From positions 1 through 24,639 of IMG/VR virus record IMGVR_UViG_3300025127_000263: DNA of 24,639 nt. One strand, written 5' to 3'. Position 1 is the stretch's first letter. Each line of letters opens with the position of its first letter. A program made the position numbers and the translations under genes. Under the pieces are notes generated by a model. It had not been told where the DNA came from and made no database searches. It saw only the letters and a program-made list of their open reading frames with translations. This DNA comes from a virus. Below, in pieces: positions 734 to 24,639 of this stretch.

Positions 734-751
734 TAACGAACACGTGCTTAT

Positions 752-773
752 GGGGGAGTTTTCACACTCCCCC
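752..773 (+). terminator. GC-rich hairpin, probable terminator
   Basis: GGGGGAGT (752-759) pairs with ACTCCCCC (766-773) around a 6-nt loop. The following T-run is poor. The hairpin sits directly before the late promoter at 781, so it probably insulates the small structural gene from the fibre operon. Confidence 0.6.
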
Positions 774-780
774 TATTCTA

Positions 781-788
781 TATAAATA
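781..788 (+). promoter_or_regulatory. Consensus T4 late promoter TATAAATA
   Basis: This is an exact match to the T4 late consensus. The ATG of the 495-aa fibre gene begins 7 nt after the element, and no Shine-Dalgarno lies between. By T4 spacing the transcript would start at or within about 2 nt of the ATG. Confidence 0.8.
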
Positions 789-795
789 CTAGCAA

Positions 796-2283
796 ATGGC
801 TAAAACTTTACGTACATCAGGTGATTACACAATTAAAGCAGGTGACGGATTTGACTCTGGATCAGGCACAAATACCATTACACTTGATAGTTTGAATGTA
901 TCTGTAAACGGAAACTTGACAGTGGGTGGTACTTCAACCACTGTGAGCACAACAAACACCACGATAGAAGACAACATAATAGAATTAAACACAGGTGCAT
1001 CTGCAAACACCAATAGTGCAGGTATAATAATAGAAAGAGGCACAGCAGGAGACAACGCGGCACTGTTATGGAAAGAAGACACAGATTCATTTATTTTTGG
1101 AACGACAACGGCCACTGCGGCTGACAAGTCAAGTGCTGTATCGGTTACGGCAGGAGATCTAGAAGTAAGCAATCTTACTGCCGGTAAAGTTACAACAAAC
1201 GAGATCACAGCAAATGGTTCTAACGCCGCTTTGACAGTGGCATCATCAGGCACAGGCGATGTAACTATAGACTCAGGAGGCGACCTAATAGTTGATGTTG
1301 ATAATGCAGATTTAATATTAAAAGATGACGGCACAGAATTTGGAAGGCTCAGTAGGGTTACAGCAGACTTTGTAATCAAGTCATCAGCACAAGATAAAGA
1401 TTTAATTTTCAAAGGCAATGATAACGGTGCCACAGTGACTCCATTGACATTAGACATGAGTGAAGGCGGCGACGCTATATTTGGTGCAAAGATAGTAACT
1501 AACGGCAACAGAATTACACATGCACAGGCAGGCACAGTAAGTTTCATGGATTTCACTGTGACCCAGTTTGGACAAGACAACAACACTGTCCTAAGCAGTG
1601 TGAAAAGCATCAACATGTTTTTGGACTCAAATGGTGGCGACACAGGACAGGCATTCAGGATCTACAACAACACCAACCCAGACGGTTCACCGACAGAAAG
1701 CACATTCATTTTCAAAATTCAAGAAGATGGCGATATGTTTGTGACTGGAGATACCAGCATGACTGGCACTCTTACAGCAACAGACATCACTGCAAACAGT
1801 TTAACAACAAACACGATCACATCTAATGGATCAAACGCAGAGTTATCATTACAAGCGAGTGGTACAGGTGATGTTGTTGTTAGTGCATTAAGAGTAAATG
1901 GTACCACATTAGATTCAGCAGATTCAACAAAAATCACAGTAGCGGAAGACGTGGATGTCACAGGCACTTTGTTCTCTCGAGGAAATGTTTTTGGTGTGCA
2001 AACGCTGACTGGTTCAGGTAGCACTGAGGTAGTAAATTTGACAGACACAGTTACACTCTTAGTCACTACTGGTAGCTCACAGGCCTTTTCATTGGCAGAT
2101 GGCGTGGAAGGACAGATCAAAATAATTTCAATGAAGACCGACGGCGGCAGTGGAATAGTAACGCCGGCAAACTTTGTTAACGGCACAAGAATTACATTTG
2201 ATGATGTTGAGGACACCGTAACACTGCTTTATCAATCAACTGGTTGGGTGGCCCTTGCCCGTCAGAACGCAACCTTCTCATAA
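796..2283 (+). CDS. Tail-fibre-like repeat protein (495 aa)
   Basis: An elongated beta-rich protein, almost free of Cys and dominated by Thr, Ser, Asn, Gly and Ala. Residues about 34-105 form the module LTVGGTSTTV...IEDNIIELN...GIIIERG, common in marine T4-like fibres; a sister copy lies at residues 228-290 of the 468-aa fibre. NGSNA...GTGDV modules lie at residues 140-156 and 344-390. The second is followed by LRVNGTTLDSADSTKITVAE, shared with the 956- and 468-aa proteins. The C-terminal domain (about 400-495) has VTPANFVNGTRITFDD and ends near a GW motif, as fibre tips in cyanophages do. The gene is preceded by a consensus late promoter with no ribosome binding site. Role inferred: long or short tail fibre, or a connector. 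It could equally be a whisker-like head or neck fibre. Confidence 0.7.
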   Translation: MAKTLRTSGDYTIKAGDGFDSGSGTNTITLDSLNVSVNGNLTVGGTSTTVSTTNTTIEDNIIELNTGASANTNSAGIIIERGTAGDNAALLWKEDTDSFIFGTTTATAADKSSAVSVTAGDLEVSNLTAGKVTTNEITANGSNAALTVASSGTGDVTIDSGGDLIVDVDNADLILKDDGTEFGRLSRVTADFVIKSSAQDKDLIFKGNDNGATVTPLTLDMSEGGDAIFGAKIVTNGNRITHAQAGTVSFMDFTVTQFGQDNNTVLSSVKSINMFLDSNGGDTGQAFRIYNNTNPDGSPTESTFIFKIQEDGDMFVTGDTSMTGTLTATDITANSLTTNTITSNGSNAELSLQASGTGDVVVSALRVNGTTLDSADSTKITVAEDVDVTGTLFSRGNVFGVQTLTGSGSTEVVNLTDTVTLLVTTGSSQAFSLADGVEGQIKIISMKTDGGSGIVTPANFVNGTRITFDDVEDTVTLLYQSTGWVALARQNATFS

Positions 2284-2292
2284 GGATAACGG

Positions 2293-2736
2293 ATGAGATA
2301 TAAAGAAATAGACATTAATATAAAAGCAATTCCAGACAAAGAGGATGAGGAACTTCTAAATCAATTGATTGGATCAAAGAAAGCATCTGTATCAACAGAC
2401 AGCGAAGAGGTCAAAACGGATGACAGCAACACTGACAATCCAGGAAAAGTTTCATCAGATGATCCTAATACAAAACCTCCCATGTATCCATTACAACAAG
2501 AATTAGAATTGAAAAAACAGGAAGCAGGCAAAGATCTTGCTCAGTTTGACAACATTGTTCAAGACGCAGATGAACAAGCTGAAGATGAAATTGCAAGGAA
2601 AGACGGTCCTTTGGTCCAACAACCCGAAACAACCGGTGGAGATCAACCTGGCGTACCACAAGGAATGAAATCCAAAGAACCAAAGACAGAAAGTGAATTT
2701 ATACAAAGACTAAAAACATTATCTGGCCAAAATTAA
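2293..2736 (+). CDS. Hydrophilic acidic protein of unknown function inside the fibre cassette
   Basis: A 147-residue protein that I do not recognise beyond its context. It is very rich in Asp, Glu, Lys, Gln, Ser and Pro, with no hydrophobic core, Cys or membrane segment. The middle (about 60-95, MYPLQQELELKKQEAGKDL) may form an amphipathic helix, while the flanks look disordered. AAGGA at 2282-2286 precedes ATG 2293 and the gene starts 9 nt after the fibre stop, so it is translated from the fibre message. Its lack of beta modules in an otherwise all-fibre cassette, and its small charged character, would suit a fibre-assembly chaperone or adaptor. That is inference from position only. Confidence 0.6.
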   Translation: MRYKEIDINIKAIPDKEDEELLNQLIGSKKASVSTDSEEVKTDDSNTDNPGKVSSDDPNTKPPMYPLQQELELKKQEAGKDLAQFDNIVQDADEQAEDEIARKDGPLVQQPETTGGDQPGVPQGMKSKEPKTESEFIQRLKTLSGQN

Positions 2737-2745
2737 GGAGCGTAA

Positions 2746-3183
2746 ATGGCATTTAGAAAACTAGTAGGTTCATACAAAGATTACGATTTGTCCACACACA
2801 TCATCGAAGATGGCTACCTTGCAGTAGACGTAGACACAGGCAGTTTAAGAATAGGCGATGGAGTTACACCAGGCGGAACCGAAGTATCTTCAGGCGGCGG
2901 AGGCGGGTCTGCTAGTAGTCTGGGTGACCTTACTGCAACAGGATCAACACTGTCAGCACCTAGCAATGCAGATTTGACTTTAAGTGTAGGAGGATCAGGA
3001 AACATAGTATTAACAGGAATAACTTTCCCAAACTCCGACGGATCAGCAAACCAAGTGCTGGCAACAAACGGATCGGGGGTGTTAACATTTGTTGACAACA
3101 CAGCATCACTTAACCTAGATGGTGGTGACGCGACATCAGATTATAGTGCGATCGCGGCACTAGATGGAGGCACAGCAGAATAA
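2746..3183 (+). CDS. Short fibre protein with an Mtd-like N-terminal domain (145 aa)
   Basis: Residues about 20-45 (GYLAVDVDTGSLRIGDGVTPGG) match the pattern of the phage receptor-binding N-terminal domain seen in major tropism determinant-type fibres (GE-x-G-x-DT-x-R-x-IGDG). A glycine/serine linker follows, then a module (GDLTATGSTLSAPSNADLTL ... SDGSANQVLATNGSGVL) nearly repeated at residues 58-113 of the next gene. The tail ends with LDGG repeats. AAGGAG (2735-2740) sets the start. The stop overlaps the next start as TAATG, indicating translational coupling. It looks like a shortened paralogue of the 432-aa fibre. It may be a connector or trimerisation partner, or the product of an old partial duplication. 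Confidence 0.65.
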   Translation: MAFRKLVGSYKDYDLSTHIIEDGYLAVDVDTGSLRIGDGVTPGGTEVSSGGGGGSASSLGDLTATGSTLSAPSNADLTLSVGGSGNIVLTGITFPNSDGSANQVLATNGSGVLTFVDNTASLNLDGGDATSDYSAIAALDGGTAE

Positions 3184-4481
3184 TGCCAACACAGATTCAA
3201 TTAAGACGAGACACGGCGGCAGACTGGGCATCAAACAATCCTACCATGGCGGCAGGAGAATTTGGTTGGGAGTCGGATACAAATAGATTTAAGATTGGAA
3301 CAGGATCAACGGCTTGGAACAGTTTAGAATACGCAGACACACTAAAAACACTAGGTGATCTGGGAATAACAGGATCAACTATATCGGCACCTTCCAACGG
3401 TGACCTAACACTTACCACTTCTGGGTCAGGCAAGGTAAACATTTCAAACGCCTACACACTTCCTTCATCAGATGGTAGTGCCAACCAAGTTTTACAGACA
3501 AATGGATCAGGAGTTTTATCTTTTGGATCAGTGTCAGTTGGTGATTTCAGTTTTGTTGGTTCAACAATGAGTTCACCAAGTAATGCAGATATCACACTTT
3601 CTCCAGGAGGCACAGGCGGAGTTGTTGCATCAGGGTTAAGATTGAATGGAACAACCATAAGTGCAGACGATAGCTCAACAATAAACATCAATGATGGTCT
3701 AAATGTAGACGGTACAGCTAATATTGAAGGTGCTTTATCGACAAATACTAGTTTAGCGTTGGCGAGTGGTGCAACTGTAACAGCTATCTTGGATGAGGAT
3801 AATTTTAGTAGTGACAGTGACACTGCTTTGGCGACACAACAATCTATAAAGGCCTATGTTGATAACGAAGTGTCTAATGTAAGTGTTGGAGATCTTAGTT
3901 TTGTGGGCTCGACCATAGCCGCCCCGAGTAATGCAGATCTAACATTGACTTCGAGCAACGGAAATGTTGTGATTGAAGGAATAAGGGTGGCAGGTACCAC
4001 ACTATCAACAGAAGATTCATCCCCTGGAATCGAAATAGCAGGTAATTTGATACCCAGCCAGGACGGTGTTTTTCAGCTAGGATCATCAAGCAGAAGGTGG
4101 CAAACTTTATTTGTTGCCGCAGAAACAATTGATCTAGGAGGAGCAGTAATTTCATCAGATACAACAGGATCATTAACTATTTCTGCATCAGGTGCCACAT
4201 TACCGTCAGGATCGAAGGTCGTGGACCAGACAATAGTTTTAGGTGGAAAAACAAACAAAACAACGGCAAGACCAGTGCAAATTGTGAAAGTTTTTGTAAG
4301 CGATGGGAGTACGAATTTTTCAGATGCACAGCTACTGGCCAAAACAGCAAATTTAGAACTTGAGTTCAACGGAACAGTTGAGGATGTGCCAGTTTACACA
4401 GAAGCTGAACAACAATTTACATTATCAGACGGTAATTCTTTGGCATCAAATCAAACAGGTGTGACGCTGTTTCAGTTCTAA
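3183..4481 (+). CDS. Tail-fibre-like protein with an Mtd-like N-terminal domain (432 aa)
   Basis: Residues 1-52 (IQLRRDTAADW...GEFGWESDTNRFKIG...W) closely fit the N-terminal domain found on many phage receptor-binding fibres (major tropism determinant N-terminal type). The shaft carries PSNADITLSPGGTGGV and RLNGTTIS modules (131-185), an LDEDNFSS...LATQQSIKAYVDNEV segment (203-230) also present in the 956- and 468-aa proteins, and a further PSNAD module (248-275). Residues about 290-345 (FQLGSSSRRWQTLFV...IDLGG...GATLPSGSK) form a module known from cyanophage fibres. The last 85 residues look like a distinct tip domain. The start is the ATG of a TAATG overlap with the upstream paralogue. Function inferred: adsorption fibre. 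Confidence 0.7.
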   Translation: MPTQIQLRRDTAADWASNNPTMAAGEFGWESDTNRFKIGTGSTAWNSLEYADTLKTLGDLGITGSTISAPSNGDLTLTTSGSGKVNISNAYTLPSSDGSANQVLQTNGSGVLSFGSVSVGDFSFVGSTMSSPSNADITLSPGGTGGVVASGLRLNGTTISADDSSTININDGLNVDGTANIEGALSTNTSLALASGATVTAILDEDNFSSDSDTALATQQSIKAYVDNEVSNVSVGDLSFVGSTIAAPSNADLTLTSSNGNVVIEGIRVAGTTLSTEDSSPGIEIAGNLIPSQDGVFQLGSSSRRWQTLFVAAETIDLGGAVISSDTTGSLTISASGATLPSGSKVVDQTIVLGGKTNKTTARPVQIVKVFVSDGSTNFSDAQLLAKTANLELEFNGTVEDVPVYTEAEQQFTLSDGNSLASNQTGVTLFQF

Positions 4482-4492
4482 TTGATAAAAGC

Positions 4493-4500
4493 AATAAATA
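4493..4500 (+). promoter_or_regulatory. Late promoter AATAAATA for the 956-aa fibre
   Basis: AATAAATA lies 61 nt upstream of the ATG at 4562. The predicted leader holds a GC-rich patch (4521-4550) and has no convincing Shine-Dalgarno close to the start. Confidence 0.6.
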
Positions 4501-4561
4501 CAGCATAAACAAAAGGGAATGCATCCGGTGGGGGCAAGAAGGCCGGGCACAGAACTAGTAT

Positions 4562-7432
4562 ATGGCAGATAAGACACCGGTACGAGTAGTATTCAACGCA
4601 TCAAATGTGGCCACAGGCCTAGCAGAGTTTCAATCAGGCGACACTGTCGGCACAGCCTTTGGTGGTACAGGCTTAACTTCCATAGGTTCAGCGGGCCAAG
4701 TTTTAAAAGTTAACGCGGCAGGAAATGCATTAGAGTTCGCCGCAGAAGGTGATGTGTCAATCACCAACCTGGTAGCCCCAACAAACGCAGATTTAACATT
4801 TACAACGTCAGGCACAGGAAACATTGTGCTAGATGCAATTACGGTAAACGGTACTACTTTGAGTGCCGCAGATTCAACAAAAATTACAGTCGCAGAAGCA
4901 TTGGATGTCACAGGAGCGTTGGTTGCCGCTACCTCACTTAACATTGCAGGTGATGGTGCAACTGTAACGGGTATCAAAGATGAAGACAACATGGCATCAA
5001 ATAGTGCCACAAAATTAGCCACACAACAATCTATCAAAGCATATGTTGATAGTGAAATATCAAGTATATCAACCACAGCAATATCACAAAACGATTCAAA
5101 CATCACTGTGTCAGATTCTGGATCAGGCACAATCACGGTTACTGTGGATGGATCGACAGTTGGTGACTTCACAGGATCAGGCTTACAGCTTGGAGGCTCA
5201 GGAGCAAGAGTGACCACTGTACTAGACGAAGATGCAATGGGGACAAACAGTGCAACAGCACTTGCAACACAACAGTCAATCAAGGCTTTTGTTGAAAGTG
5301 GCACTAGCACATTAACAAATAAAACTTTAACCACGCCAACTATCAGTGCACCTACAATCACTGGCACTGCTACGATTGGAGCCATTACTACAAACGCAAT
5401 TACCTCGAATGGTTCTAATGCTGACATATCTATACAGCCAAGTGGTACAGGTGACGTTGTGGTCGGTGGAATAAGAGTCAACGGAACTACATTAGATTCA
5501 TCAGATTCAAGCACAATTAACATTAATGAAAATGTAATCATAGATGGTAACTTGACCGTAGAAGGCACAGTCGACTTCCAAGATCAAAATATATCAAATG
5601 TTGGCAGTTTATCATTAGATTCTATAAGTGGTGACGCAGATTCAAACACCTCAATTACTTTTAGCGGATCAGATGTAATCACAATGGCGACAGGTGGATC
5701 GACAGCGGCCACTTTTAACGCAGACCAAACAACATCATTCAGTGGTGCAGTCAATATTACAACAACCACTACCGATGCATCATTATTAATCACGTCAACA
5801 GAAGATTCAAACAGTGCCGCACCTGTAATTGAACTGAAAAGAAACAGTTCGAGCCCTGCAGATGCAGACTACCTTGGAAGAGTAACTTTCAAAGGAGAGA
5901 ACGACGCAGACCAGGCAGTAACTTATGCCAGAATATCAGGAAAAATTTTAGATGCATCAGATGGCACAGAAGATGGTGCAATAGAATTCAATACAATGAA
6001 AGCCGGTTCGGCAACTATTTCAGCTCGGCTTAACAGTGATGAACTTAAATTATTAAATGGCACCACACTAGACGTTGATGGTGCAGGGACTTTTGCCGGC
6101 GCCGTTACAGCAACCAGCATCACTGCAAATGATTTCACATCAAATGGTTCTAATGCAGACATTACAATAGCTCCACAAGGTACAGGAAATATCAAATTGA
6201 CGGCAGGTGCAGACGTGATAATTCCTGTAAACATAGGATTGCATTTTGCAGATGCTAATGAAAAAATCGAATCCGATGGAAGCAAATTGACAATCACATC
6301 AGGTGGTACAGCATTCAATCTACCAACATCAGATGGGTCAGCAGGTCAGGCGCTTGTGACAGACGGTTCTGGAAACTTGTCTTTCGACACTGTTTCAACC
6401 ACTGTATCAGATGACACATTGGCAACTGTAAGGAACAATAAGTCGTTAAGCACTGCGGCAAGAACGATCGATAGTATTAATGCAACATTCATAGACAGTG
6501 CATTTTATTTCTTGGTACACAATGATCTCGTAAATGAAGTGATAAGTGCAGAAATGTTAGCTGTTACAAACAACGATTCCGCTTCATTCTTAGGAAACAG
6601 ACGAGGTATTGAATCAGCAGGTGGAAGCACTGTCCCAACACTATCCACGGATGTCAGTAATGGACAATTTCGAGTAAGAGCAACAGGTACGTCAGCTGAC
6701 TGTAAAGTAAGTTTCTACAAAGTTGCTATGAGTTCCAGCACAGCCGATGCCACGAGAGGTAACACTGTCACAACCAGTAACACAGATGTAGATTCTGCGT
6801 CAGAATCAATTGACACTTTTGCTCATGCTTCATTTAGAGGTGCAAAATACTTTATAAGTGTTGATAATGATAGTAAAACAGAAATGGATGTAGTGGAGGC
6901 ACTGGTGGTTCACGACGGATCCGATGCTTACATAACATCATATGGACACAACACTTCAGGTGGCAATCCGTTGATCACTCTGACAGCCGCAATCTCAGGT
7001 GATAATGTTGTTGTAAGTGCGGCAGGCCTAGAAACAAATCTAAATTTAACAATACACAAAATTTTATTGAAAGACAACATGACAGCAGAAAGCAACGCCA
7101 ATCAAAAGGCATTTGCGGCAGTCACAGTAAGTTCAAGTGCCACAGCAATAGACACAATGGACCTAGATGAAGGTAATGGTGCAGTGTATTTTATAGTAGG
7201 GGCTAATAGTTCAGAAGGCGCATTTAGCATACAAGAGGTATACACAGCGGCAACTCCAGGAGTACCAGCCGTAGCCAATGGTCCTTTTGTTTCAACAAAA
7301 GGCACACATCAATTAGAATTCACAGCAGGCTTTGACACTTCAAGCGAAAACAGCCTTGAACTTTTTGCTTCAAGCACTTCCGGTGGAAGCACAACAGTGT
7401 CTGGTTACAGAATATCTGCATTAGCAGGCTAA
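4562..7432 (+). CDS. Large modular tail-fibre-like protein (956 aa)
   Basis: The N-terminus (PVRVVFNASNVATGLAEFQSG, then GGTGLTSIGSAGQVLKV) is the usual opening of marine T4-like fibre proteins and supports this start despite a weak ribosome binding site. The shaft contains NADLTF/NGSNADI modules at 75-120, 283-335 and 528-545. Two DEDNM/DEDAM...LATQQSIKA(Y/F)V segments lie at 132-166 and 214-246, and a TLTNKTLTTPTISAPTI linker at 250-266. Residues about 405-505 are a shaft domain (ASLLITSTEDS...ARISGKI...GAIEF). The C-terminal third consists of three related domains (632-722, 747-837, 860-956), each opening near an ID motif with an AFYF, AKYF or AVYF core. Role inferred: host-recognition fibre or other elongated virion appendage. 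Confidence 0.75.
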   Translation: MADKTPVRVVFNASNVATGLAEFQSGDTVGTAFGGTGLTSIGSAGQVLKVNAAGNALEFAAEGDVSITNLVAPTNADLTFTTSGTGNIVLDAITVNGTTLSAADSTKITVAEALDVTGALVAATSLNIAGDGATVTGIKDEDNMASNSATKLATQQSIKAYVDSEISSISTTAISQNDSNITVSDSGSGTITVTVDGSTVGDFTGSGLQLGGSGARVTTVLDEDAMGTNSATALATQQSIKAFVESGTSTLTNKTLTTPTISAPTITGTATIGAITTNAITSNGSNADISIQPSGTGDVVVGGIRVNGTTLDSSDSSTININENVIIDGNLTVEGTVDFQDQNISNVGSLSLDSISGDADSNTSITFSGSDVITMATGGSTAATFNADQTTSFSGAVNITTTTTDASLLITSTEDSNSAAPVIELKRNSSSPADADYLGRVTFKGENDADQAVTYARISGKILDASDGTEDGAIEFNTMKAGSATISARLNSDELKLLNGTTLDVDGAGTFAGAVTATSITANDFTSNGSNADITIAPQGTGNIKLTAGADVIIPVNIGLHFADANEKIESDGSKLTITSGGTAFNLPTSDGSAGQALVTDGSGNLSFDTVSTTVSDDTLATVRNNKSLSTAARTIDSINATFIDSAFYFLVHNDLVNEVISAEMLAVTNNDSASFLGNRRGIESAGGSTVPTLSTDVSNGQFRVRATGTSADCKVSFYKVAMSSSTADATRGNTVTTSNTDVDSASESIDTFAHASFRGAKYFISVDNDSKTEMDVVEALVVHDGSDAYITSYGHNTSGGNPLITLTAAISGDNVVVSAAGLETNLNLTIHKILLKDNMTAESNANQKAFAAVTVSSSATAIDTMDLDEGNGAVYFIVGANSSEGAFSIQEVYTAATPGVPAVANGPFVSTKGTHQLEFTAGFDTSSENSLELFASSTSGGSTTVSGYRISALAG
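6455..7429 (+). repeat. Three tandem diverged domain repeats in the C-terminus of the 956-aa fibre
   Basis: Residues 632-722, 747-837 and 860-956 align by eye. Each has an ID motif, then about 12 residues later a (F/K/V)YF strand, a V-x-N/D/A stretch, an E-(M/A/V)-(L/Y) strand and a closing hydrophobic strand. The third copy is more diverged and longer. The copies are repeated at protein level only; the DNA is not near-identical. Confidence 0.55.
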
Positions 7433-7435
7433 ATA
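7428..7435 (+). promoter_or_regulatory. Possible late promoter GCTAAATA for the 468-aa fibre
   Basis: The TAAATA core overlaps the stop codon (7430-7432) of the 956-aa gene and lies 37 nt before ATG 7473. A GGGAGA at 7457-7462 can serve as ribosome binding site. Weaker than the other late elements because of its first two bases. Confidence 0.4.
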
Positions 7436-7472
7436 ATAACATTAACAACAATCATGTGGGAGATATGGAACC

Positions 7473-8879
7473 ATGACAACACGTAACTTTAGAGTTAACA
7501 ATGGCTTAGAATGCGGTGATATTACATTATCAGCTTCGGCCAACACAATCACAGGTCTAGCTACATCGGCACCATCAGGAGACGGTGACGTAGTAACTAA
7601 GGCGTACAGTGACTCTGGTACGCAGACAATGACCAACAAGACTTTAACAAGTCCAACAATTTCAGCGCCAACAATACTTGGCACTGCGACAGTGGGAGCA
7701 ATCACAACTAACGTGATCGCATCCAATGGATCGAATGCTGAACTTTCAATACAACCTAGTGGAACAGGAGATCTATTACTAAGTTCTTTAAGAGTTAATG
7801 GAACGACTCTTGATTCATCTGATTCAACTAAGGTCACGATAGCGGAGGCAGTAGACATAACTGGTGCTTTATCAGCCGGCACATCACTTGTGATAGCAGG
7901 TGACGGGGCAACTGTTACAGGTATCAAAGACGAAGACAACATGGCGTCAAATAGTAACACCAAATTAGCAACACAACAGTCGATCAAAGCGTATGTTGAC
8001 AACGAAATATCAGGTATATCATCAACTGCCATTTCACAAAACAACACAAACGTGACTGTTGCTGACACAGGAGATGGATCAGTGACCGTAACTGTAGATG
8101 GCAACACTGAAATGACAATAACTGATGCAGGTGTTAGGGTACACGGTGACTTCACGGTTGACGGGACTACAACAACAATTAACACATCAACATTGACAGT
8201 TGAAGACAACGTTATCGAAGTGAACAGAAACGTTTCTGCAAATTCAGGTATGCCTACATTCTCAGGTTTGAAAGTCAACAGAGGAGAAACATCCACTGCC
8301 ACAGAACAAGACCTGTACTGGGTATGGGACGAATCATTTGCAGATGACGGAACAACTACACACGGTAATGCAGGTGGTGCCTTTACAGCACTACGTTCAC
8401 AAGGAGATAGTTCACCACAATCGGACTTTTCACTTGTAGATATACGTGCCAACGTGGTACACGCTTTATCAACTTCGGCTCAGTACGCGGACGTTGCCGA
8501 GCGTTTCGAAGCAGACGCTCCAATGGCAGAGGGTGCAGTAGTTACAGTAGGTGGCTCAGCAGAGATCACTGAAACAACAACTGACCTATCAGATTCAGTA
8601 TTTGGCGTAGTATCAACAATGCCGGCATATGCCATGAACGCAGGTGCAGGTAACAACGATTCACATCCATTTGTAGCAATGACAGGAAGAACACCAGTGA
8701 GAGTAATAGGTGAAGTAACCAAAGGACAAAGATTGGTATCAAGTTCTACAAAAGGTTGTGCAAGAGCAGTAGCACAGGGTGAGTCAATCACACCTTTCCA
8801 TGTAATTGGTAGAGCTTTAGAAAGCTCAACTGATTCAGGAATCAAGTTGGTAAACTGTGCTGTGAGAACTAACAACTAA
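7473..8879 (+). CDS. Tail-fibre-like protein with a chaperone/autoprotease-like C-terminal domain (468 aa)
   Basis: An N-terminal cap (MTTRNFRVNNGLECGDITL) and a TMTNKTLTSPTISAPTI linker lead into an NGSNAELSIQPSGTGD module (85-131). Next comes a block (141-189) almost identical in protein to residues 128-177 of the 956-aa fibre. Residues 228-290 repeat the TVDGTTTTIN...VEDNVIEVN module of the 495-aa fibre. Residues about 336-468 (YADVAERFEAD, VFGVVSTMPAY, GRTPVRVIGEVTKGQRLVSS, VIGRALES) resemble the C-terminal domain of the Peptidase_G2/IMC type that follows many phage and bacterial fibres. That type can act as an intramolecular chaperone; autocleavage here is not shown. GGGAGA at 7457-7462 supports the start. 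It is the last gene of the fibre cluster, followed by a bidirectional terminator. Confidence 0.7.
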   Translation: MTTRNFRVNNGLECGDITLSASANTITGLATSAPSGDGDVVTKAYSDSGTQTMTNKTLTSPTISAPTILGTATVGAITTNVIASNGSNAELSIQPSGTGDLLLSSLRVNGTTLDSSDSTKVTIAEAVDITGALSAGTSLVIAGDGATVTGIKDEDNMASNSNTKLATQQSIKAYVDNEISGISSTAISQNNTNVTVADTGDGSVTVTVDGNTEMTITDAGVRVHGDFTVDGTTTTINTSTLTVEDNVIEVNRNVSANSGMPTFSGLKVNRGETSTATEQDLYWVWDESFADDGTTTHGNAGGAFTALRSQGDSSPQSDFSLVDIRANVVHALSTSAQYADVAERFEADAPMAEGAVVTVGGSAEITETTTDLSDSVFGVVSTMPAYAMNAGAGNNDSHPFVAMTGRTPVRVIGEVTKGQRLVSSSTKGCARAVAQGESITPFHVIGRALESSTDSGIKLVNCAVRTNN

Positions 8880-8905: not shown

Positions 8906-8936
8906 AAAAAGGCGGCTTTCGAGTCGCCTTTTTTTT
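8906..8936. terminator. Bidirectional terminator between convergent operons
   Basis: GGCGGCT (8911-8917) pairs with AGTCGCC (8922-8928), with one G-U pair, around a TTCG tetraloop. Five A's stand on the left and eight T's on the right. It can therefore terminate the fibre operon on + and the gp14-gp15-DUF2061-Nudix operon on -. The Nudix stop codon (8935-8937) overlaps its T-run. Confidence 0.9.
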
Positions 8937-9363
8937 AGACAATTAAATCAAGGATTGTTTGTAGTTTGCCTTTAATACTTTTGTTGTTTAAAGTATTACG
9001 TAAACCGCCATGTAAATTTTTAGGCCAACATTCGAAAGCACACCAACAATACCCTGAATGTTCACCATTTAATTTTGGAATAAATTCACCGTCGATTGCG
9101 ATTAGATAGGTGTGAAAGAAAAACTTTTGATCATTTGATGTAAACAATTCTAATGGGATAACCTTCTTGAATGCCGGTGTATCTCCAACTTCTTCGGATA
9201 TTTCACGTTTCAAACCTTCAAATGCAGATTCAGTATAGTGTGCTTGGCCTCCAACAAGTCCCCAAGTGCCCTGTGTCTTTCGATCGGTTCTTTGTAAAAA
9301 CAAGAAACGTTTTGTGCTGGTGGAATAGAATAAAGCACCTGAACAAATAATATTTTCTTTCAT
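8935..9363 (-). CDS. Nudix (MutT-like) hydrolase
   Basis: A 142-residue protein with a nearly complete Nudix box, GX5EX7REUXEEXGU: G39, E45, R53, E54, E57, E58 and G60 are all present. Only the final hydrophobic position differs (Asp61). The fold is otherwise standard: an N-terminal strand (SGALFYST), a substrate-side strand (FLFLQRTDR) before GTWGLVGG, then the catalytic helix. Such enzymes hydrolyse nucleoside diphosphates linked to another group, for example oxidised dNTPs, ADP-ribose or ADP-sugars; the substrate cannot be told here. The ATG overlaps the DUF2061 stop as TAATG, so translation is coupled. Being non-structural and driven with DUF2061 by a host-type promoter, it is probably expressed early. 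T4 also carries a Nudix enzyme (nudE), but orthology is not claimed. Confidence 0.9.
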   Translation of the reverse strand: MKENIICSGALFYSTSTKRFLFLQRTDRKTQGTWGLVGGQAHYTESAFEGLKREISEEVGDTPAFKKVIPLELFTSNDQKFFFHTYLIAIDGEFIPKLNGEHSGYCWCAFECWPKNLHGGLRNTLNNKSIKGKLQTILDLIV

Positions 9364-9673: not shown

Positions 9674-9702
9674 ATTATAACAGAAAAAAATTATATTATC
9701 AA
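9674..9702 (-). promoter_or_regulatory. sigma70-like promoter for DUF2061-Nudix
   Basis: On the minus strand TTGATA (9702-9697) and TATAAT (9679-9674) are separated by exactly 17 bp. The -10 is a perfect consensus and the -35 has one mismatch to TTGACA. ATG at 9668 follows 5 nt after the -10. The -35 overlaps the gp15 stop codon (9701-9699). Confidence 0.75.
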
Positions 9703-11138
9703 GGAGTAGTAGCGTCTTGCCCTGATGCATCATCGTTTGCCACAAAACCACCATCCAATACGATGGTCCAATTACCAGCGGTGTATATGCCCTCATAGGA
9801 TTTGACCCATTCGGTGCCAGTGAATCTGTATTGAATTCCCGTGTTAGAGTTTGTCACATAGTGTAAAGTTGAATCTGGATTTGATGCATCAAAAACTTTT
9901 ACAAATTTTGTTCCGTCGTATTGTATAATATCTCCAACACTGGCAACTAAATTGCCCCAAGTTGAACTTTGCACCGTTGCTGTTGAATCTCCGATCTGAT
10001 CAATTATGAGATATCTATCGCCTGCCGCATTGTTTGTAGGAGCAAATGTTAATGGATTAATTATCTTTTTCACAGCAGGTAAAGTGTTTGCAGGAATAGT
10101 ATCATTGTCGATTGTATATAACAATATGCTATCATCCAATGATGTTGTCGCAATAGTTCCGACTATTTCATTGCCAGTTGGCTGTTGTAGTCTGATCTGG
10201 CTGGTACCGTTCCTTACTTTTCCGTATTGATCAAGCAAAAGTTTCCAATTCACAGGTGGACCAAAAGTTTCGAAAGGATCTGCTAGTCCGGGATCTCGTG
10301 CCCCTGTGTGAAACCCATCACCACCAGATGACACATTTACGCCTGTAGTGCCTAGTAGGCGTAGTTGGTTTCCGGTCACAAGCAAACCAAAATTGTTTGG
10401 AGTGATAAAACTTTGTGATATCAACGGTCCGCTGATCAGGCCTTTGTTAATGCCACCGTCGTCGTCATATACGCTCATGATAATTTTTTGTATTACGCCT
10501 AATTTTGAAACTTTTACAGGAGGTGATAACCATATCGGCATACTAAATGTCATTGTTGCAACATCTATTTCCGAGTCTGCACCAACGGGAATAGTTCTAC
10601 TGCTAAATGTAATGTCTCTAAGTTCTACATAACTTAGACTAGTCCAATCAATGTAGTTGTCGCTTTTTTGTATTTCAAAATCAGGATTAAACAAATACAA
10701 TATTTGCTCCATAATTTGTAATTTTTGATCGGTGTTGCTACTATAAATGTCGGCTGTGACTTCTAATCTAAAAGGCGATGGCATAACTTTTTCAATTGTA
10801 TAGCCTGCTCCTAATTTATTACTGTAAGTACCATCCTCTAAAACATCACGTTCCTTCAAATGTTGTTTTTCCACGTGATAAGGATTTTGCATTCTCTCAC
10901 GATCATAATTTAATTCTCTGATGTAACAAGCAATTTTGGGTGCATAGTTTAAAGCATTTTCACTATTTTGCCTTATAATATTTGCTACCTGTCTAGTGGC
11001 ATCTCCATAAACGACTGGCACTGGTCTAAGTGCAATCTGATCGTCCTTGCCCCTACCAGTTTCAACACTAAAATTATTCAATATTCTCATGAATTGTGTT
11101 AAAAATCTTCTTACCTGTCCCGAATAAAAATGGAGCAT
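9699..11138 (-). CDS. gp15: gp15-like proximal tail sheath stabilisation protein, extended C-terminus
   Basis: The N-terminal 215 residues follow T4 gp15. FYSGQVRRFLTQFMRILNNF corresponds to T4 FYNSSFRRYATLMGDLFSNI. PSPFRLEVTADIYSSN...QIMEQILYLFNPDF (120-154) corresponds to PSPIKMIYELSIFTRYED...QIVEQILPYFQPHF. MTFSMPIWLSPPV (196-208) matches the T4 segment ending in YPPV. In T4 this protein caps the tail tube and sheath and joins the tail to the head. This copy has 479 residues against about 270 in T4. The extra part includes a domain at about 355-465 (KKIINPLTF, GDRYLIID, DIIQYDGTKFV, YRFTGTEWVKSYEGIY), also known from cyanophage homologues. ATG overlaps the gp14 stop (TAATG). Confidence 0.88.
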   Translation of the reverse strand: MLHFYSGQVRRFLTQFMRILNNFSVETGRGKDDQIALRPVPVVYGDATRQVANIIRQNSENALNYAPKIACYIRELNYDRERMQNPYHVEKQHLKERDVLEDGTYSNKLGAGYTIEKVMPSPFRLEVTADIYSSNTDQKLQIMEQILYLFNPDFEIQKSDNYIDWTSLSYVELRDITFSSRTIPVGADSEIDVATMTFSMPIWLSPPVKVSKLGVIQKIIMSVYDDDGGINKGLISGPLISQSFITPNNFGLLVTGNQLRLLGTTGVNVSSGGDGFHTGARDPGLADPFETFGPPVNWKLLLDQYGKVRNGTSQIRLQQPTGNEIVGTIATTSLDDSILLYTIDNDTIPANTLPAVKKIINPLTFAPTNNAAGDRYLIIDQIGDSTATVQSSTWGNLVASVGDIIQYDGTKFVKVFDASNPDSTLHYVTNSNTGIQYRFTGTEWVKSYEGIYTAGNWTIVLDGGFVANDDASGQDATTP

Positions 11139-19914: not shown

Positions 19915-20291
19915 TGGCAGAATTTTATACAAACCTACCACAAAAAGATAAAGATAATCTGCAGGATACAATCGATAAACTAAAGACGGCCAATTATCAA
20001 GAGGAATACCAATTCAACGCAGGTGAATATGATGCGGCAATTGCCTTTTTTGTTCAACGGGGTTTCAAGAGAGAATCTGCAGAGTCAACAGCTTATGTAA
20101 TTTTGGCACAGGCAAAGATTGATAATATAAATCCGCAAGAACTTTTGGACAAATTGACATATGCAACACCGGCCCAACTGTCAGAACTTATAACAATCAT
20201 ACTTAATGCTAACAGATACAAGTCTAGTAGATTGGGTGTGAGGCAAACACTCGCTACCAAAGACCTAGTATCTAGAAATATTCTAGACTAA
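19914..20291 (+). CDS. Conserved small helical protein, probably structural (125 aa)
   Basis: An all-helical, soluble protein starting MAEFYTNLPQKDKDNLQDTI. NAGEYDAAIAFFVQRGFKRESAESTAYVILAQAKIDNINPQELLDKL is its core, and it ends RYKSSRLGVRQTLATKDLVSRNILD. I recall similar proteins at this place in marine T4-like phage genomes; no T4 counterpart or function is known to me. ATG overlaps the upstream stop (TAATG), and its own stop overlaps the start of gp4 in the same way, so three genes are translationally chained. Such tight linkage to a tube-fold protein and to head-completion gp4 suggests a virion or assembly role. Confidence 0.65.
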   Translation: MAEFYTNLPQKDKDNLQDTIDKLKTANYQEEYQFNAGEYDAAIAFFVQRGFKRESAESTAYVILAQAKIDNINPQELLDKLTYATPAQLSELITIILNANRYKSSRLGVRQTLATKDLVSRNILD

Positions 20292-20731
20292 TGTTGCCCA
20301 GATTCGCAAAAGGAAAATTCTATCCAAAAAATCAAGAAAAGTATGTTGGCTTGAAAACACCAACATATAGATCTAGTTGGGAACATGCATTTATGAGATT
20401 GTGTGATCAACATCCTAACGTGGCAAAGTGGGCAAGTGAATCAATTAAGATACCTTATAGACATCCTTTGACTGGAAAGTACACGGTGTATGTGCCAGAC
20501 TTTTTTGTTGTGTACGTAGATAAAAATGGCGCCAAACACGCTGAACTGATTGAAGTGAAACCAAAATCACAAACTAACATTCGTGATGCTGGTAAAAGTC
20601 AAGGTAAGAAAAAGCAGGCCGTGATAAACATGGCCAAATGGGAGGCGGCAAATGCTTACGCAAAACAAAATAAAATTAGGTTCAGGGTATTGTCAGAAGA
20701 ACAGTTATTCCATCAAGGCTCACGTAAGTAA
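20291..20731 (+). CDS. gp4: Head completion protein gp4 (PD-(D/E)XK-like fold)
   Basis: A 146-residue protein aligning along its length with T4 gp4. KFYPKNQEKYVG (T4 KWVPKNISKYRG), TYRSSWEHAFMRLCDQHPNVAKWASESIKIPY (TYRSNWEKFFFEWLDKNPEIIAWGSETAVIPY), the middle segment ELIEVKPKSQT (FIEIKPKKET) and MAKWEAANAYAKQNKIRFRVLSEEQL (KWKAAQSLAEKRGIKFRILTEDGL) correspond. Acidic D70 in YVPD and the E88-V-K90 pair fit a PD-(D/E)XK nuclease-type core, with E31 in SSWE as a likely further ligand. In T4 gp4 is needed to finish packaged heads so that tails can join. It is coupled to the upstream gene by TAATG. Confidence 0.93.
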   Translation: MLPRFAKGKFYPKNQEKYVGLKTPTYRSSWEHAFMRLCDQHPNVAKWASESIKIPYRHPLTGKYTVYVPDFFVVYVDKNGAKHAELIEVKPKSQTNIRDAGKSQGKKKQAVINMAKWEAANAYAKQNKIRFRVLSEEQLFHQGSRK

Positions 20732-20739: not shown

Positions 20740-21255
20740 ATGACAAAGAAGTTAGAAGAAATTTTAAATTTACCAAATGTTAAAGAAGCATTTGCAAAGG
20801 TTGATGCTAAAGACAAAGAAAAAGCCGATCAAGCTAATGGCAAAAGCAAAAACTTAGACCCGCAAACACAAAAGAACTTAGAGAAAAGTTATGCCGAATT
20901 TGATAAGATTTCCTCAGCTTTGCCACAAGTCAAAGGTCTTGGAGAATTGTCTGACCTAGAACTGGACAAACTGGCGGTTGAGGCCGAAGAAAGTTACAAA
21001 AATTTAATGGATTTGGGTATGAATGTTGACTCGCGTTACTCAGGACGTATATTCGAAGTGGCAAGTACCATGTTAAGAAATGCTATTGATGCCAAATCTA
21101 ACAAAATTGATAAGAAATTGAAAATGGTTGAATTACAACTTAAAAAGCAAAAAATTGACCAAGGCAATAAGGATGATACAGGTATAGAAGAGCAGGATGG
21201 TTTCGTGATATCTGACCGCAACGAATTGATGAAGAAACTACTTAAAAAAGACTAA
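20740..21255 (+). CDS. gp16: Small terminase subunit gp16
   Basis: A 171-residue acidic, mostly helical protein. The central part (ELSDLELDKLAVEAEESYKNLMDLGMNVDSRYSGRIFEVASTMLRNAIDAK, followed by KMVELQLKKQK) has the long antiparallel coiled-coil pattern of T4 gp16 ([39 protein letters not shown]). The end (VISDRNELMKKL) matches T4 VFMGSPTELMDEI. The subunit recognises concatemeric DNA and stimulates gp17 during packaging. Here gp17 is two genes downstream rather than adjacent. A late promoter overlaps the gp4 stop and sets the start at 20740. Confidence 0.8.
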   Translation: MTKKLEEILNLPNVKEAFAKVDAKDKEKADQANGKSKNLDPQTQKNLEKSYAEFDKISSALPQVKGLGELSDLELDKLAVEAEESYKNLMDLGMNVDSRYSGRIFEVASTMLRNAIDAKSNKIDKKLKMVELQLKKQKIDQGNKDDTGIEEQDGFVISDRNELMKKLLKKD

Positions 21256-21264: not shown

Positions 21265-21861
21265 ATGAGCACTTTTAAACAATACCTAACAGAAGCACAT
21301 AAGTCATATGACTATAAAATAAAGGTTGCCGGCGAGCCTAAAGATATAGATAAAAATCGTTTAGAAACTGCATTACAAAAATTTGAACTAGCAAAAATGT
21401 CCGCAGGCAAAAACACACCTATACAAAAATTACCATTAGATTTTCCGGCTCTAAGCAACGAATCAGTTACAATATTTGATGTTACTACAAATTATCCTGC
21501 TTCACCAAGGGAAATGAAAGAATATTTAGGCACATACTTGAATATACCGCAAACACATATTGTTGTTCGAAAACCAAACGAACCATCGGAAGAATATCAA
21601 GAACAAATGCAAGTGGCAGAAAAATCAGAATATGTGAATAAATTAAGAGATATCGAATACAAAGATGCTCCAAAAGTCAACGCTGAAGATTTTCATTCTA
21701 CCAAAGCTAACATGAGTTTGTTAAAAGAATTATTAAAAGACAGAGAAGAAGACAAGGACATGCCAAAAGAAAATCCAAATATTCAAAGCAAAGAAGAAGT
21801 TGCAACACCAAGTCCTTTCACAAAATCAACCAATCCACATCCAGATCCAGCAAGGAAATAA
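21265..21861 (+). CDS. Probable internal head protein with a capsid-targeting sequence (198 aa)
   Basis: The first ten residues, MSTFKQYLTE, followed by Ala11, parallel the T4 capsid-targeting sequence MKTYQEFIAE-A of internal proteins IPI-IPIII. They also contain L8-T9-E10 before A11, a perfect T4 prohead-protease (gp21) site, (L/I)xE before A/G/S. The mature protein would have 188 residues. The rest shows no signal peptide or membrane helix. Residues about 15-110 (YDYKIKVAGE, LETALQKFELAKM, VTIFDVTTNYPASPREMKEYL, IPQTHIVVRKP) look like a small alpha/beta domain with ferredoxin-like strand order, and the last 60 residues are charged and disordered. Similar proteins occur beside terminases in marine T4-like phages, but I know no function. 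The targeting-sequence reading is inference from motif position and sequence. Confidence 0.65.
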   Translation: MSTFKQYLTEAHKSYDYKIKVAGEPKDIDKNRLETALQKFELAKMSAGKNTPIQKLPLDFPALSNESVTIFDVTTNYPASPREMKEYLGTYLNIPQTHIVVRKPNEPSEEYQEQMQVAEKSEYVNKLRDIEYKDAPKVNAEDFHSTKANMSLLKELLKDREEDKDMPKENPNIQSKEEVATPSPFTKSTNPHPDPARK

Positions 21862-21865
21862 ACCT

Positions 21866-23023
21866 ATGGAAATGATTGACGTATTGAAGAGATTGCAAGA
21901 AATCGCTAACAAAAGTCCTGAAGTGCAAAAAGCAATCAGTTCAACAGAAGCAATGAATCCAAAACAGCAGGCGGCAATTGCCATTGCTAAAAAAGAAAAA
22001 AATGAAGCCCATGGTGGCCAACACACAACAACGGGCAGATCAATGACAAGCGGCGAAATGGACAAAAGAGAAAAAATTGTCAAAGGCATGAAAAAAGACA
22101 AGGCAGGGTTCAAGAAAAGATATGGCAAAGACGCAGATGCAGTCATGTATGCCACAGCAACAAAGCAGGCAATGAAGGATGACGAAATGCAAGAAAAAGT
22201 TGGTGGAATGAGTGATGTTTTCATCGGTGCCGAAGAGGCGATTGGTGATTATGTCGACGATGACGGTGTGTTAAAAATGCCAAAGCAGGATGTTGTTAGA
22301 GATCTTGTGAAAAGATCAAAAGAAGCACCATTTCCTAAGTCATACGAACTAGAAACAGCGGCCAAAATGGTTGCGGACAAATTTGGTGACGATGGTGAAG
22401 AAAAATATATGGGCGATGATACACTAAATACAAACACTATGGAAACAAAAGACAAAAAAGAAGTAAAAGAAGCGATCCAAATCACAACCGACTCTCCAGA
22501 AGAAGCAGGTATGATGATGCAAATTTTAAAATTAGCAGGTGTCAAACCAATGGGTGCTGACATGCCAGACATGAAGCCTGACATGGAACCAAAACACGAC
22601 ATGGATCACGGTGACGATGATGCAATGATGTCGATGGACATGGGACGAATGAGAGACATGGTAATGAAACCTGACATGGAGAAACAAGAAGAAACTTTTG
22701 CAAACTCTCCAGGCGACAGACCAAAAGCTGAACCAACAGTGCAAGATGTTGATTCGCTAGTGAATGTGCATTCGGGTGGATTGAACAGACAAAAAACTCA
22801 GTACAGAAAAGAATATCCAGGTGACAACCCAATGGCTGTTGCTCAAGAAGACAAAATTACTGAAGAAGAACTTTCAAACAGTCTAAGAACGCAATACGAG
22901 TCTTTCAAGAAAGCATACACTGAAGCGGCAAAACCTGATTACATCGATCTAGATAAAGATGGTAATAAGACAGAGCCAATGAAAAAAGCGGCCAAAGACA
23001 AAGAAGCAAAAGAGAAAAAATAA
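21866..23023 (+). CDS. Met/Asp/Lys-rich virion-associated protein of unknown function (385 aa)
   Basis: The frame is open from 21800, but ATG 21866 has AAGGA (21852-21856) 9 nt before it and avoids a long overlap, so it is preferred. Residues about 68-103 hold DKREKIVKGMKKDKAGFKKRYG and AVMYATATKQAMK, a motif repeated in many marine T4-like phage proteins of unknown role. SPEEAGMMMQILKLAG lies at 210-225. Residues 228-271 are an unusual run of Met, Asp, Pro and His. Residues 279-318 (NSPGDRPKAEPTVQDVDSLV, GGLNRQKTQYRKEYPGDNP) are conserved-looking. Near the end DLDKDGNKTEP (361-371) resembles a short calcium loop. It is highly charged and largely disordered. A scaffold-like or internal head role is possible by position beside gp16 and gp17; function is not known. 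Confidence 0.7.
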   Translation: MEMIDVLKRLQEIANKSPEVQKAISSTEAMNPKQQAAIAIAKKEKNEAHGGQHTTTGRSMTSGEMDKREKIVKGMKKDKAGFKKRYGKDADAVMYATATKQAMKDDEMQEKVGGMSDVFIGAEEAIGDYVDDDGVLKMPKQDVVRDLVKRSKEAPFPKSYELETAAKMVADKFGDDGEEKYMGDDTLNTNTMETKDKKEVKEAIQITTDSPEEAGMMMQILKLAGVKPMGADMPDMKPDMEPKHDMDHGDDDAMMSMDMGRMRDMVMKPDMEKQEETFANSPGDRPKAEPTVQDVDSLVNVHSGGLNRQKTQYRKEYPGDNPMAVAQEDKITEEELSNSLRTQYESFKKAYTEAAKPDYIDLDKDGNKTEPMKKAAKDKEAKEKK

Positions 23024-23062: not shown

Positions 23063-24639
23063 ATGGCGTATGTTAGTTTAGATTCGCAACAAATTAAACG
23101 TGCAAACAAAAAGCACAAATATACCAAGGATCAGGTAGAGCAATTGGAAAAATGCATGGACCCTAAAACAGGTCCGCTGTATTTCATGAAGCAATTTATG
23201 AAAATACAACATCCAACCAAAGGCGAGATGCCGTTCAAACCTTATCCTTATCAAGAAAGATTAATTGAAGCTTACAATTCACATAGGTTTTCGATATCAA
23301 TGTTACCTAGGCAGACAGGGAAGACCACGTGTGCCTCAGGTTATTTGATATGGTATGCCATGTTCCATCCTGACTCATCGATACTAATCGCGGCACACAA
23401 ATACGCAGGAGCATCGGACATCATGTCCAGGGTTCGTTACGCATATGAGATGTTGCCTGGTTGGATAAAGGCAGGTGTGCAACAGTATAACAGGAACAGT
23501 ATTGAATTTGACAACGGGTCAAAAATAATGGCAACTACCACAACAGAAAATACAGGTAGAGGTATGTCCTTGACTATGATATACTGCGATGAGTTTGCAT
23601 TCGTGCAACCTCCCGAAAAAGCAGTTGAGTTTTGGACTTCGCTATCTCCGACATTGAGTACAGGAGGAAAATGCCTAATAACTTCCACACCTAATAGTGA
23701 CGAGGATCAATTTGCATTGATCTGGAAAGAAGCAAACAAAAGGTTTGATGAGTACGGAAACGACAAGATAATAGGAACCAATGGTTTCTATGCAATGAAG
23801 GCACACTGGAATGAACATCCGGATAGAGATGAAGCATGGGCAGAAGCGGAAAGATCGAGAATAGGTGAAGAAAGATTCAGAAGGGAACACGAATGTGAAT
23901 TCTTAATCTTTGATGAAACCTTGATCAGTAGTATCACACTGGCGGACATGGAAGGTGTTGCTCCAGTGGAGACAACAGGACAAGTGCGTTGGTTCAAACG
24001 CCCAACACCGGGACACACATATCTTGTCAGCCTTGATCCAAGCATGGGCACGGGCGGAGACTACGCGGCAATACAGGTTTTTGAATTGCCAACATTTGAA
24101 CAGGTAGGTGAATGGCATCACAACCAGACACCAATGAATCAGCAAATTAGGATATTGCAAGGCATCAACAAGCATATACATGACACTATAATGGAAAAAG
24201 ACAGCACAGCAACACCGCAAATTTTTTATTCAATGGAAAACAATACCATAGGAGAAGCCGCTTTGATGAGGGTGATGGACATAGGTGAAGAAAATATAGT
24301 TGGCATGTTTTTATCAGAACCTATAAGAAAAGGACACAGACGTAAATTTAGAAGAGGATTCAACACAACCGCAAAACACAAGATTGATGCTTGTACAAAA
24401 TTTAAAGAACTTGTCGAAGGTGGTAAAATGAAAATAAATTCACAGCTTTTGATCTCCGAAATGAAGGATTTTGTGGCGTCAGGCCTGAGCTACAAGGCAA
24501 AACCCGGACAGCACGATGACCTTGTAAGTTCTTGTCTTTTGATGACACGTATGATGAAAGTTTTGGCTGATTTTGACCCTAAAATATTTGAAAAATGGAC
24601 AGATAGAACTTCAGAATTAACAACACCAATGCCGATATT
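23063..24639 (+). CDS. gp17: Large terminase subunit gp17 (3' end outside window)
   Basis: The frame is open from ATG 23063 to the window edge: 525 residues, probably lacking only a short tail (T4: 610). ATPase domain: adenine-site PYPYQ (60-64), Walker A MLPRQTGKTT (80-89, T4 SRQLGKTT), Walker B MIYCDEFAF (172-180) and coupling motif ITSTPNS (206-212). Nuclease domain (RNase H-like): LVSLDPSMGTGGDYAAIQV (321-339; first Asp325, T4 TLDCSEGRGQDY), SMENNTIGE (390-398), and GQHDDLVSSCL (482-492; T4 GYHDDLVMSL). The protein translocates DNA into the prohead and makes the headful cut. It reads directly from a late promoter (gap 7 nt). The nuclease acidic residues are all in place, so the enzyme should be active. 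Confidence 0.95.
   Translation, partial: MAYVSLDSQQIKRANKKHKYTKDQVEQLEKCMDPKTGPLYFMKQFMKIQHPTKGEMPFKPYPYQERLIEAYNSHRFSISMLPRQTGKTTCASGYLIWYAMFHPDSSILIAAHKYAGASDIMSRVRYAYEMLPGWIKAGVQQYNRNSIEFDNGSKIMATTTTENTGRGMSLTMIYCDEFAFVQPPEKAVEFWTSLSPTLSTGGKCLITSTPNSDEDQFALIWKEANKRFDEYGNDKIIGTNGFYAMKAHWNEHPDRDEAWAEAERSRIGEERFRREHECEFLIFDETLISSITLADMEGVAPVETTGQVRWFKRPTPGHTYLVSLDPSMGTGGDYAAIQVFELPTFEQVGEWHHNQTPMNQQIRILQGINKHIHDTIMEKDSTATPQIFYSMENNTIGEAALMRVMDIGEENIVGMFLSEPIRKGHRRKFRRGFNTTAKHKIDACTKFKELVEGGKMKINSQLLISEMKDFVASGLSYKAKPGQHDDLVSSCLLMTRMMKVLADFDPKIFEKWTDRTSELTTPMPI

What the first reader, a model, noticed from the sequence alone, without database searches (positions are those of the whole stretch)
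21265..21297. T4-like capsid-targeting sequence on a gene beside the terminase
MSTFKQYLTE-A matches T4 internal protein leaders (MKTYQEFIAE-A) in length and in residue type at most positions, and carries a canonical prohead-protease site after Glu10. It predicts that this 198-aa protein is packed inside the head, trimmed by gp21 and injected with DNA. In T4 such proteins counter host defence (for example IPI). This is a route to an unrecognised injected effector.
Basis: partly seen in the sequence, partly recalled or inferred. Interest (0 to 1): 0.66.

Follow-up and report, generated by a model that had tools for sequence, protein, structure and literature searches.

The report
Head-loading tag on phage virion protein
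A conserved virion protein of an abundant marine phage lineage begins with a ten-residue tag very like the one phage T4 uses to load proteins into its head and then clip off, but it looks like a core structural part rather than a new injected weapon against the host.

Summary
The leader MSTFKQYLTE-A is really at 21265-21297 and is not chance. Among 2,450 phage N-termini only T4's own leader proteins outscore the marine family against the T4 capsid-targeting sequence (CTS); none of 6,120 internal-Met controls reaches its score. In 62 non-redundant marine homologues, positions 4 (F), 7 (Y), 8 (L) and 10 (E) are invariant: the four positions reported to control targeting (4, 7) and processing (8, 10) in T4 IPIII. 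A gp21-type protease lies on a contig of the same lineage, whose gp23 has a matching YLAE site. A CTS-like leader, probably cleaved, is well supported for this clade; neither targeting nor cleavage is shown experimentally.

'Unrecognised injected effector' is not supported. The family (PHROG 14802, 'virion structural protein') is found in jumbo-phage virions by mass spectrometry (PA5oct; CBB_210, 13 peptides), is present in 146 of 146 marine TerS-TerL loci, has a generic ferredoxin-like core, and is not basic like IPII/III. In cultured jumbo relatives the hydrophobic residues are kept, but E10 is often D, S or A; Asp10 blocks T4 processing but not targeting. Best reading: a core head protein with a docking leader that is a strict processing site only in some clades.

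The parts
21265..21861 (+). 198-aa protein, PHROG 14802 'virion structural protein' family
   Evidence: ORF; PHROG 14802 E=2.1e-11 over residues 1-165; jumbo-phage homologues
21265..21294 (+). Ten-residue capsid-targeting-like leader MSTFKQYLTE
   Evidence: Scores above all controls against the T4 CTS; positions 4, 7, 8, 10 invariant in 62 marine homologues; low-confidence short helix in the model
21292..21297 (+). Predicted prohead-protease cut, Glu10|Ala11
   Evidence: E10 with A/S at 11 in all 62 marine homologues; lineage gp23 has YLAE|Q before its conserved core; inferred, not shown
21307..21570 (+). Residues 15-102, ferredoxin-like core of the mature protein
   Evidence: AlphaFold2, block pLDDT mostly 70-91; best Foldseek matches are generic ferredoxin-like folds
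21592..21858 (+). Residues 110-198: low-confidence helices and tail, with a conserved NMSLLKELLK helix and an SP...NPHPxPxRK end
   Evidence: pLDDT about 41-61; conserved columns
20740..21255 (+). 171-aa gene directly upstream, small-terminase-like (weak)
   Evidence: PHROG 16202 E=3.5e-15; PHROG 445 terminase small subunit E=0.002
20291..20731 (+). Head completion/closure protein (T4 gp4-like, TnsA-like nuclease fold)
   Evidence: PHROG 218 E=1.3e-41; PF08722 E=1.7e-22
21866..23023 (+). 385-aa neighbour starting MEMIDVLKRLQEIA; poorly conserved and acidic; possible further head-core protein
   Evidence: Median 43.6% identity, near-full matches in 46 of 180 loci; pI 5.1
22892..23020 (+). C-terminal segment QYESFKKAYTE-AAKPDYIDLDKDGNKTEPMKK..., leader-like followed by a mini-motif
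   Evidence: Matches the N-terminus of cyanophage S-SCSM1 'virion protein' PQC12_gp280
23063..24637 (+). Large terminase (gp17-like)
   Evidence: PHROG 36964 E=1.6e-108; PF03237 E=1.8e-18

Best explanation
The gene encodes a core head protein of a T4-like lineage. Its first ten residues form a short amphipathic leader that works like the T4 capsid-targeting sequence: residues F4 and Y7 (with L8) dock the protein onto the assembling prohead core, and the gp21-type protease then cuts after E10, leaving a ~21.6-kDa protein with a ferredoxin-like core inside the head. Shown: the leader, its selective conservation, and a protease with a matching gp23 site in the lineage. Known for orthologues: virion residence by mass spectrometry. 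Inferred: docking, cleavage in this phage, location inside the head. Its job there is most likely structural (prohead-core or DNA-organising) rather than anti-host; whether it also enters the cell is open.
For: T4 IPIII mutants place targeting at residues 4 and 7 and processing at 8 and 10 (PMC9026906); exactly these four are invariant in 62 marine homologues while 5, 6 and 12 are free. If four invariant positions fell at random among positions 2-12, hitting exactly these would be 1 in 330. Gp21 (PF03420) lies on contig G018 with a 78%-identical orthologue. The predicted gp23 maturation sites are YLAE|Q (G018), FLVE|N (PA5oct), LRE|S (GAP32), LME|S (Vibrio), against FLTE|A in T4. gp22-like scaffolds start MSKLDKFLNE-S (GAP32) and MSKLEQLLKE-S (Vibrio), like the orthologues' own MNKLQKILTE and MKDLNTILTE-S. 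Virion MS: PA5oct EST35_0202; CBB_210, 13 peptides, 60.5% coverage (PMC5259590). The leader is weakly ordered in the model, pLDDT 55 against 80-91 for most of the core. Present in 146 of 146 loci.
Against: No direct proof of cleavage or interior location in any member. In cultured jumbo relatives position 10 is often D, S or A (XbC2, BF, RaK2, Munch, XaC1, PA5oct, Phosso), even between near-identical proteins, so processing is not a family-wide need, and virion presence does not depend on it. In GAP32 and CBB, E10 is followed by L, not A/S. The mature protein is near neutral to acidic (pI 5.9), unlike the basic T4 proteins with the identical leader. No second protein with this leader was seen in the sampled marine contigs.
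Confidence: 0.6

Rival explanations
1. The first ten residues are a permanent docking helix, never cleaved. The protein is a structural part of the head, portal or neck region, and E10 is kept in the marine clade for contacts rather than for cutting.
For: Hydrophobic 4 and 7 are kept family-wide while E10 changes to D, S or A in many jumbo relatives; PA5oct lacks any E in the leader yet the protein is in virions; Asp10 in T4 allows targeting but not processing (PMC9026906); the gene sits among tail-tube, head-closure and packaging genes.
Against: All 62 marine homologues keep E10 with A/S at 11, and the lineage gp23 carries the same L-x-E site; the leader is weakly ordered in the model.
Confidence: 0.22
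2. The protein is a T4 internal-protein-like effector: packed, trimmed, injected with the DNA, and active against host defence.
For: Leader similarity to T4 IPs; Ip1-3 of T4 share only this leader and inhibit GmrSD nucleases (PMC12373910).
Against: Core, syntenic, single-copy gene present in 146/146 loci and conserved into phages of unrelated hosts; no effector-like fold match; annotated structural protein.
Confidence: 0.1
3. The likeness to the T4 leader is chance or simply an ordinary N-terminal amphipathic helix of a folded protein.
For: The leader is short; M1, F4, Y7 and L8 could lie on one helix face.
Against: 0 of 6,120 controls score as high; invariant E10 is not explained by a hydrophobic face; low pLDDT for residues 1-10.
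Confidence: 0.08

Closest known systems
T4 internal proteins IPI, IPII, IPIII with the capsid-targeting sequence (CTS)
   Same: Length of leader, aromatic at 4 and 7, aliphatic at 8, E at 10 followed by A; gp21-type protease in the lineage
   Different: Query is a conserved core gene, not a variable accessory gene; not basic like the T4 proteins with the identical leader; no homology beyond the leader; only one such protein seen here
PHROG 14802 virion structural protein of jumbo phages (PA5oct EST35_0202, CBB_210, GAP32_204)
   Same: Homologous over residues 1-165, same gene neighbourhood (tail tube, head completion, TerS-like), virion residence by MS for PA5oct and CBB
   Different: Marine clade keeps F4-Y7-L8-E10-A/S strictly; jumbo members often lack E10
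T4 gp24 and gp22-like scaffolds
   Same: N-terminal leaders of the same kind (MAKINELLRE-S in T4 gp24; MSKLDKFLNE-S in GAP32)
   Different: Vertex and scaffold proteins with unrelated mature sequences

Membership tests
PHROG 14802 virion structural protein | Profile match over most of the protein | tested here: met
   E=2.1e-11, residues 1-165 of 198
PHROG 14802 virion structural protein | Conserved position after the head-completion and TerS-like genes | tested here: met
   Same order in PA5oct, GAP32, CBB and Vibrio 2.275
PHROG 14802 virion structural protein | Present in virions | not testable with these tools
   Known only for orthologues: PA5oct, CBB_210 (PMC5259590)
T4 CTS-bearing internal protein | Ten-residue leader with targeting residues 4, 7 and processing residues 8, 10 | tested here: met
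T4 CTS-bearing internal protein | gp21-type prohead protease in the same genome | tested here: inconclusive
   Window record is a fragment; protease found on G018 with an orthologue 78% identical
T4 CTS-bearing internal protein | Leader removed in the virion | not testable with these tools
   Needs N-terminal peptide mapping
T4 CTS-bearing internal protein | Small basic mature protein | tested here: not met
   Mature pI 5.9, family mean 6.2; the T4 leader proteins at 65416 and 65834 are 9.6
T4 CTS-bearing internal protein | Variable accessory gene | tested here: not met
   Present in 146 of 146 TerS-TerL loci
T4 CTS-bearing internal protein | Injected into the host | not testable with these tools
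   Needs a translocation assay

The most novel reading that the evidence does not exclude
Position 10 of this leader acts as a natural switch. Where it is E, the protein is cut free in the head (and may leave with the DNA); where it is D, S or A, the same protein stays anchored to the core or shell. The marine clade has fixed the cut form, so a core structural protein has been turned into a releasable one.
Probability: 0.22. Interest if true: 0.6.

Novelty: new member of a known kind. Interest (0 to 1): 0.42.

Why it matters
It extends the T4 capsid-targeting logic to a large uncultivated marine lineage and to a conserved jumbo-phage virion protein of unknown role, and gives a sequence rule (positions 4, 7, 8, 10) that can be scanned for elsewhere. 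The same rule flags a virion-borne NMNAT of cyanophage S-SCSM1, whose route into particles its discoverers did not explain. The E10/D10 variation among close relatives is a ready-made test of targeting versus processing.

Tried and rejected
Pfam: no match above cut-off. PDB sequence profile search: nothing significant. Foldseek against PDB: only generic ferredoxin-like folds (S6, PII, E1 DNA-binding domain) with low TM-scores, not used for function; viral library: uncharacterised proteins, one from Atu_ph07, a phage whose orthologue was also found by sequence. Tail terminator/sheath stabiliser identity rejected: that role is taken by 9699-11138 (PHROG 227). Searching the window's own whole genome for other leader proteins was not possible: the record is only the 24.6-kb fragment; ten records of the lineage (window included) and the fetched loci were scanned instead. 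Mapping E10 further through Atu_ph07 relatives found only Atu_ph07 itself. In S-SCSM1 only two N-termini score like the leader; one is MS-detected, the other is not annotated as virion, so that test of 'leader predicts virion' is weak. RaK2 paper text does not discuss its orthologue under the names searched.

Full report
The observation. The window encodes a 198-aa protein at 21265-21861 (+) that begins MSTFKQYLTEAHKSYDYKIKVAG. The first eleven codons are exactly those quoted. The gene lies directly after a TerS-like gene and a gp4-like head-completion gene, and one gene before the large terminase.

Is it more than chance? I scored N-terminal residues 2-11 of 2,450 ORFs from T4, PA5oct, GAP32, Vibrio phage 2.275 and the window's marine relatives against the T4 leader KTYQEFIAEA. 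The two identical T4 leaders and T4 gp61.1 come first; then comes the query family (up to 26; the query scores 25). None of 6,120 internal-Met controls reaches 25. In about 2,041 ORFs of the marine lineage a looser leader pattern occurs 122 times, 121 of them in this family.

What selection has kept. In 62 marine homologues less than 85% identical to one another, positions 1, 4, 7, 8 and 10 are invariant (M, F, Y, L, E), position 11 is only A or S, and positions 5, 6 and 12 are free. The codons of F4, Y7 and L8 vary synonymously; E10 is GAA throughout. A review of T4 head assembly reports that in the IPIII leader targeting depends mainly on residues 4 and 7, processing on 8 and 10, and that Asp at 10 blocks processing but not targeting (PMC9026906). 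The match of invariant positions to these four is the strongest single argument for a capsid-targeting leader.

The protease and its sites. A gp21-type protease (PF03420) occurs in PA5oct, GAP32, CBB, Vibrio 2.275 and Phosso and on marine contig G018, which also carries a 78%-identical orthologue of the query. On G018 the protease is followed by a gp22-like scaffold and gp23. The last L-x-E before the conserved gp23 core is YLAE|Q on G018, FLVE|N in PA5oct, LRE|S in GAP32 and LME|S in Vibrio 2.275; T4 gp23 has FLTE|A. The maturation sites of these relatives are predicted by position, not by peptide data. The gp22-like scaffolds of GAP32 and Vibrio 2.275 begin MSKLDKFLNE-S and MSKLEQLLKE-S, much like the leaders of the query's orthologues there.

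What the protein is. It matches PHROG 14802, 'virion structural protein', with homologues about 26-32% identical in jumbo phages of Pseudomonas, Cronobacter, Pectobacterium, Erwinia, Serratia, Vibrio, Salmonella, Klebsiella, Escherichia, Xanthomonas, Agrobacterium and Sinorhizobium. Gene order is shared with PA5oct, GAP32, CBB and Vibrio 2.275. The PA5oct orthologue is marked ESI-MS/MS. CBB_210 gave 13 unique peptides and 60.5% coverage from virions (PMC5259590 Table 4). In the marine lineage all 146 loci with TerS and the start of TerL have it. It diverges faster than gp4 or TerS (68% against about 81% median identity) but like the second tail-tube gene (71%).

Structure. AlphaFold2 with 61 sequences gives mean pLDDT 66.9. 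Residues 15-102 form a ferredoxin-like core (block pLDDT mostly 70-91), residues 1-10 are weakly ordered (55), and the C-terminal half is mostly low confidence. Foldseek finds only generic ferredoxin-like folds in the PDB. This gives no function, but fits a leader attached to a domain.

Against a family-wide processing site. In cultured jumbo relatives the hydrophobic residues at 4 and 7, and nearly always an aliphatic at 8, are kept, but position 10 is E in GAP32, CBB, PBECO4, Atu_ph07 and Vibrio 2.275, D in XbC2, BF, RaK2/K64-1 and Hallingskeid, S in Munch and Phosso, and A in XaC1 and PA5oct. Near-identical proteins from IMG/VR differ E/D/S at this position. So docking is probably general and cutting clade-specific. 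PA5oct shows that the protein reaches virions without E10.

Interpretation. Best explanation (0.60): a core head protein brought into the prohead by a CTS-like leader and, in the marine clade, cut after E10. Rivals: an uncleaved docking helix on a head or neck part (0.22); an injected effector (0.10); chance or an ordinary helix (0.08). The effector reading is weakened by universal presence, synteny and breadth of hosts, whereas T4 IPs are variable accessory proteins, each specific to particular nuclease variants (PMC12373910). Mature pI is 5.9 here against 9.6 for the two T4 proteins carrying the identical leader.

Side result. The leader score picks out two proteins in cyanophage S-SCSM1: a 106-aa hypothetical protein and NMNAT, which begins MKSFLQFLKE-AAE. 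The NMNAT was found in virions by mass spectrometry and its authors suggested it might be carried by the particle (PMC9602691). A CTS-like leader would explain that. Novelty: a new member of a known kind. I found no paper describing this leader on the PHROG 14802 family, within the open-access library searched.

Noticed in passing
L304:1762-2991 (NC_070962.1 88819-90048): NMNAT of cyanophage S-SCSM1, detected in virions by MS, starts MKSFLQFLKE-AAE: a CTS-like leader on a metabolic enzyme.
   Followed up: partly
L321:716-1036 (NC_070962.1 44215-44535): 106-aa S-SCSM1 hypothetical protein between two virion-protein genes starts MKTFKQFMSE-S, the best leader score in that genome.
   Followed up: partly
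L305:167-331 (NC_000866.4 18966-19130): T4 gp61.1 (54 aa, hypothetical) starts MKTFKEFIKE-D and scores next after the identical IP leaders.
   Followed up: partly
window 22892-23020: C-terminus of the 385-aa neighbour carries FKKAYTE-AAKPDYIDLDKDGNKTEPMKK, a mini-motif found at the N-terminus of a cyanophage virion protein.
   Followed up: partly
L306:122-343 (MK797984.1 82921-83142): PA5oct EST35_0150, 73 aa next to the portal, MS-detected, starts MKINDIITE-G: another leader-like N-terminus.
   Followed up: no
L301:1677-1895: 72-aa gene resembling a cold-shock protein (GKVKWFNPNKGFGFI, by eye) inserted between the 385-aa homologue and terL in contig G007.
   Followed up: no
window 296-8879: Several ORFs share repeated segments (SNGSNAxLSIQPSGTGDVV, DSSTININE), suggesting paralogous fibre-like genes, by eye.
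   Followed up: no
window 8935-9363: Minus-strand ORF with a Nudix-like signature (GGQAHYTESAFEGLKREISEEVG), by eye.
   Followed up: no
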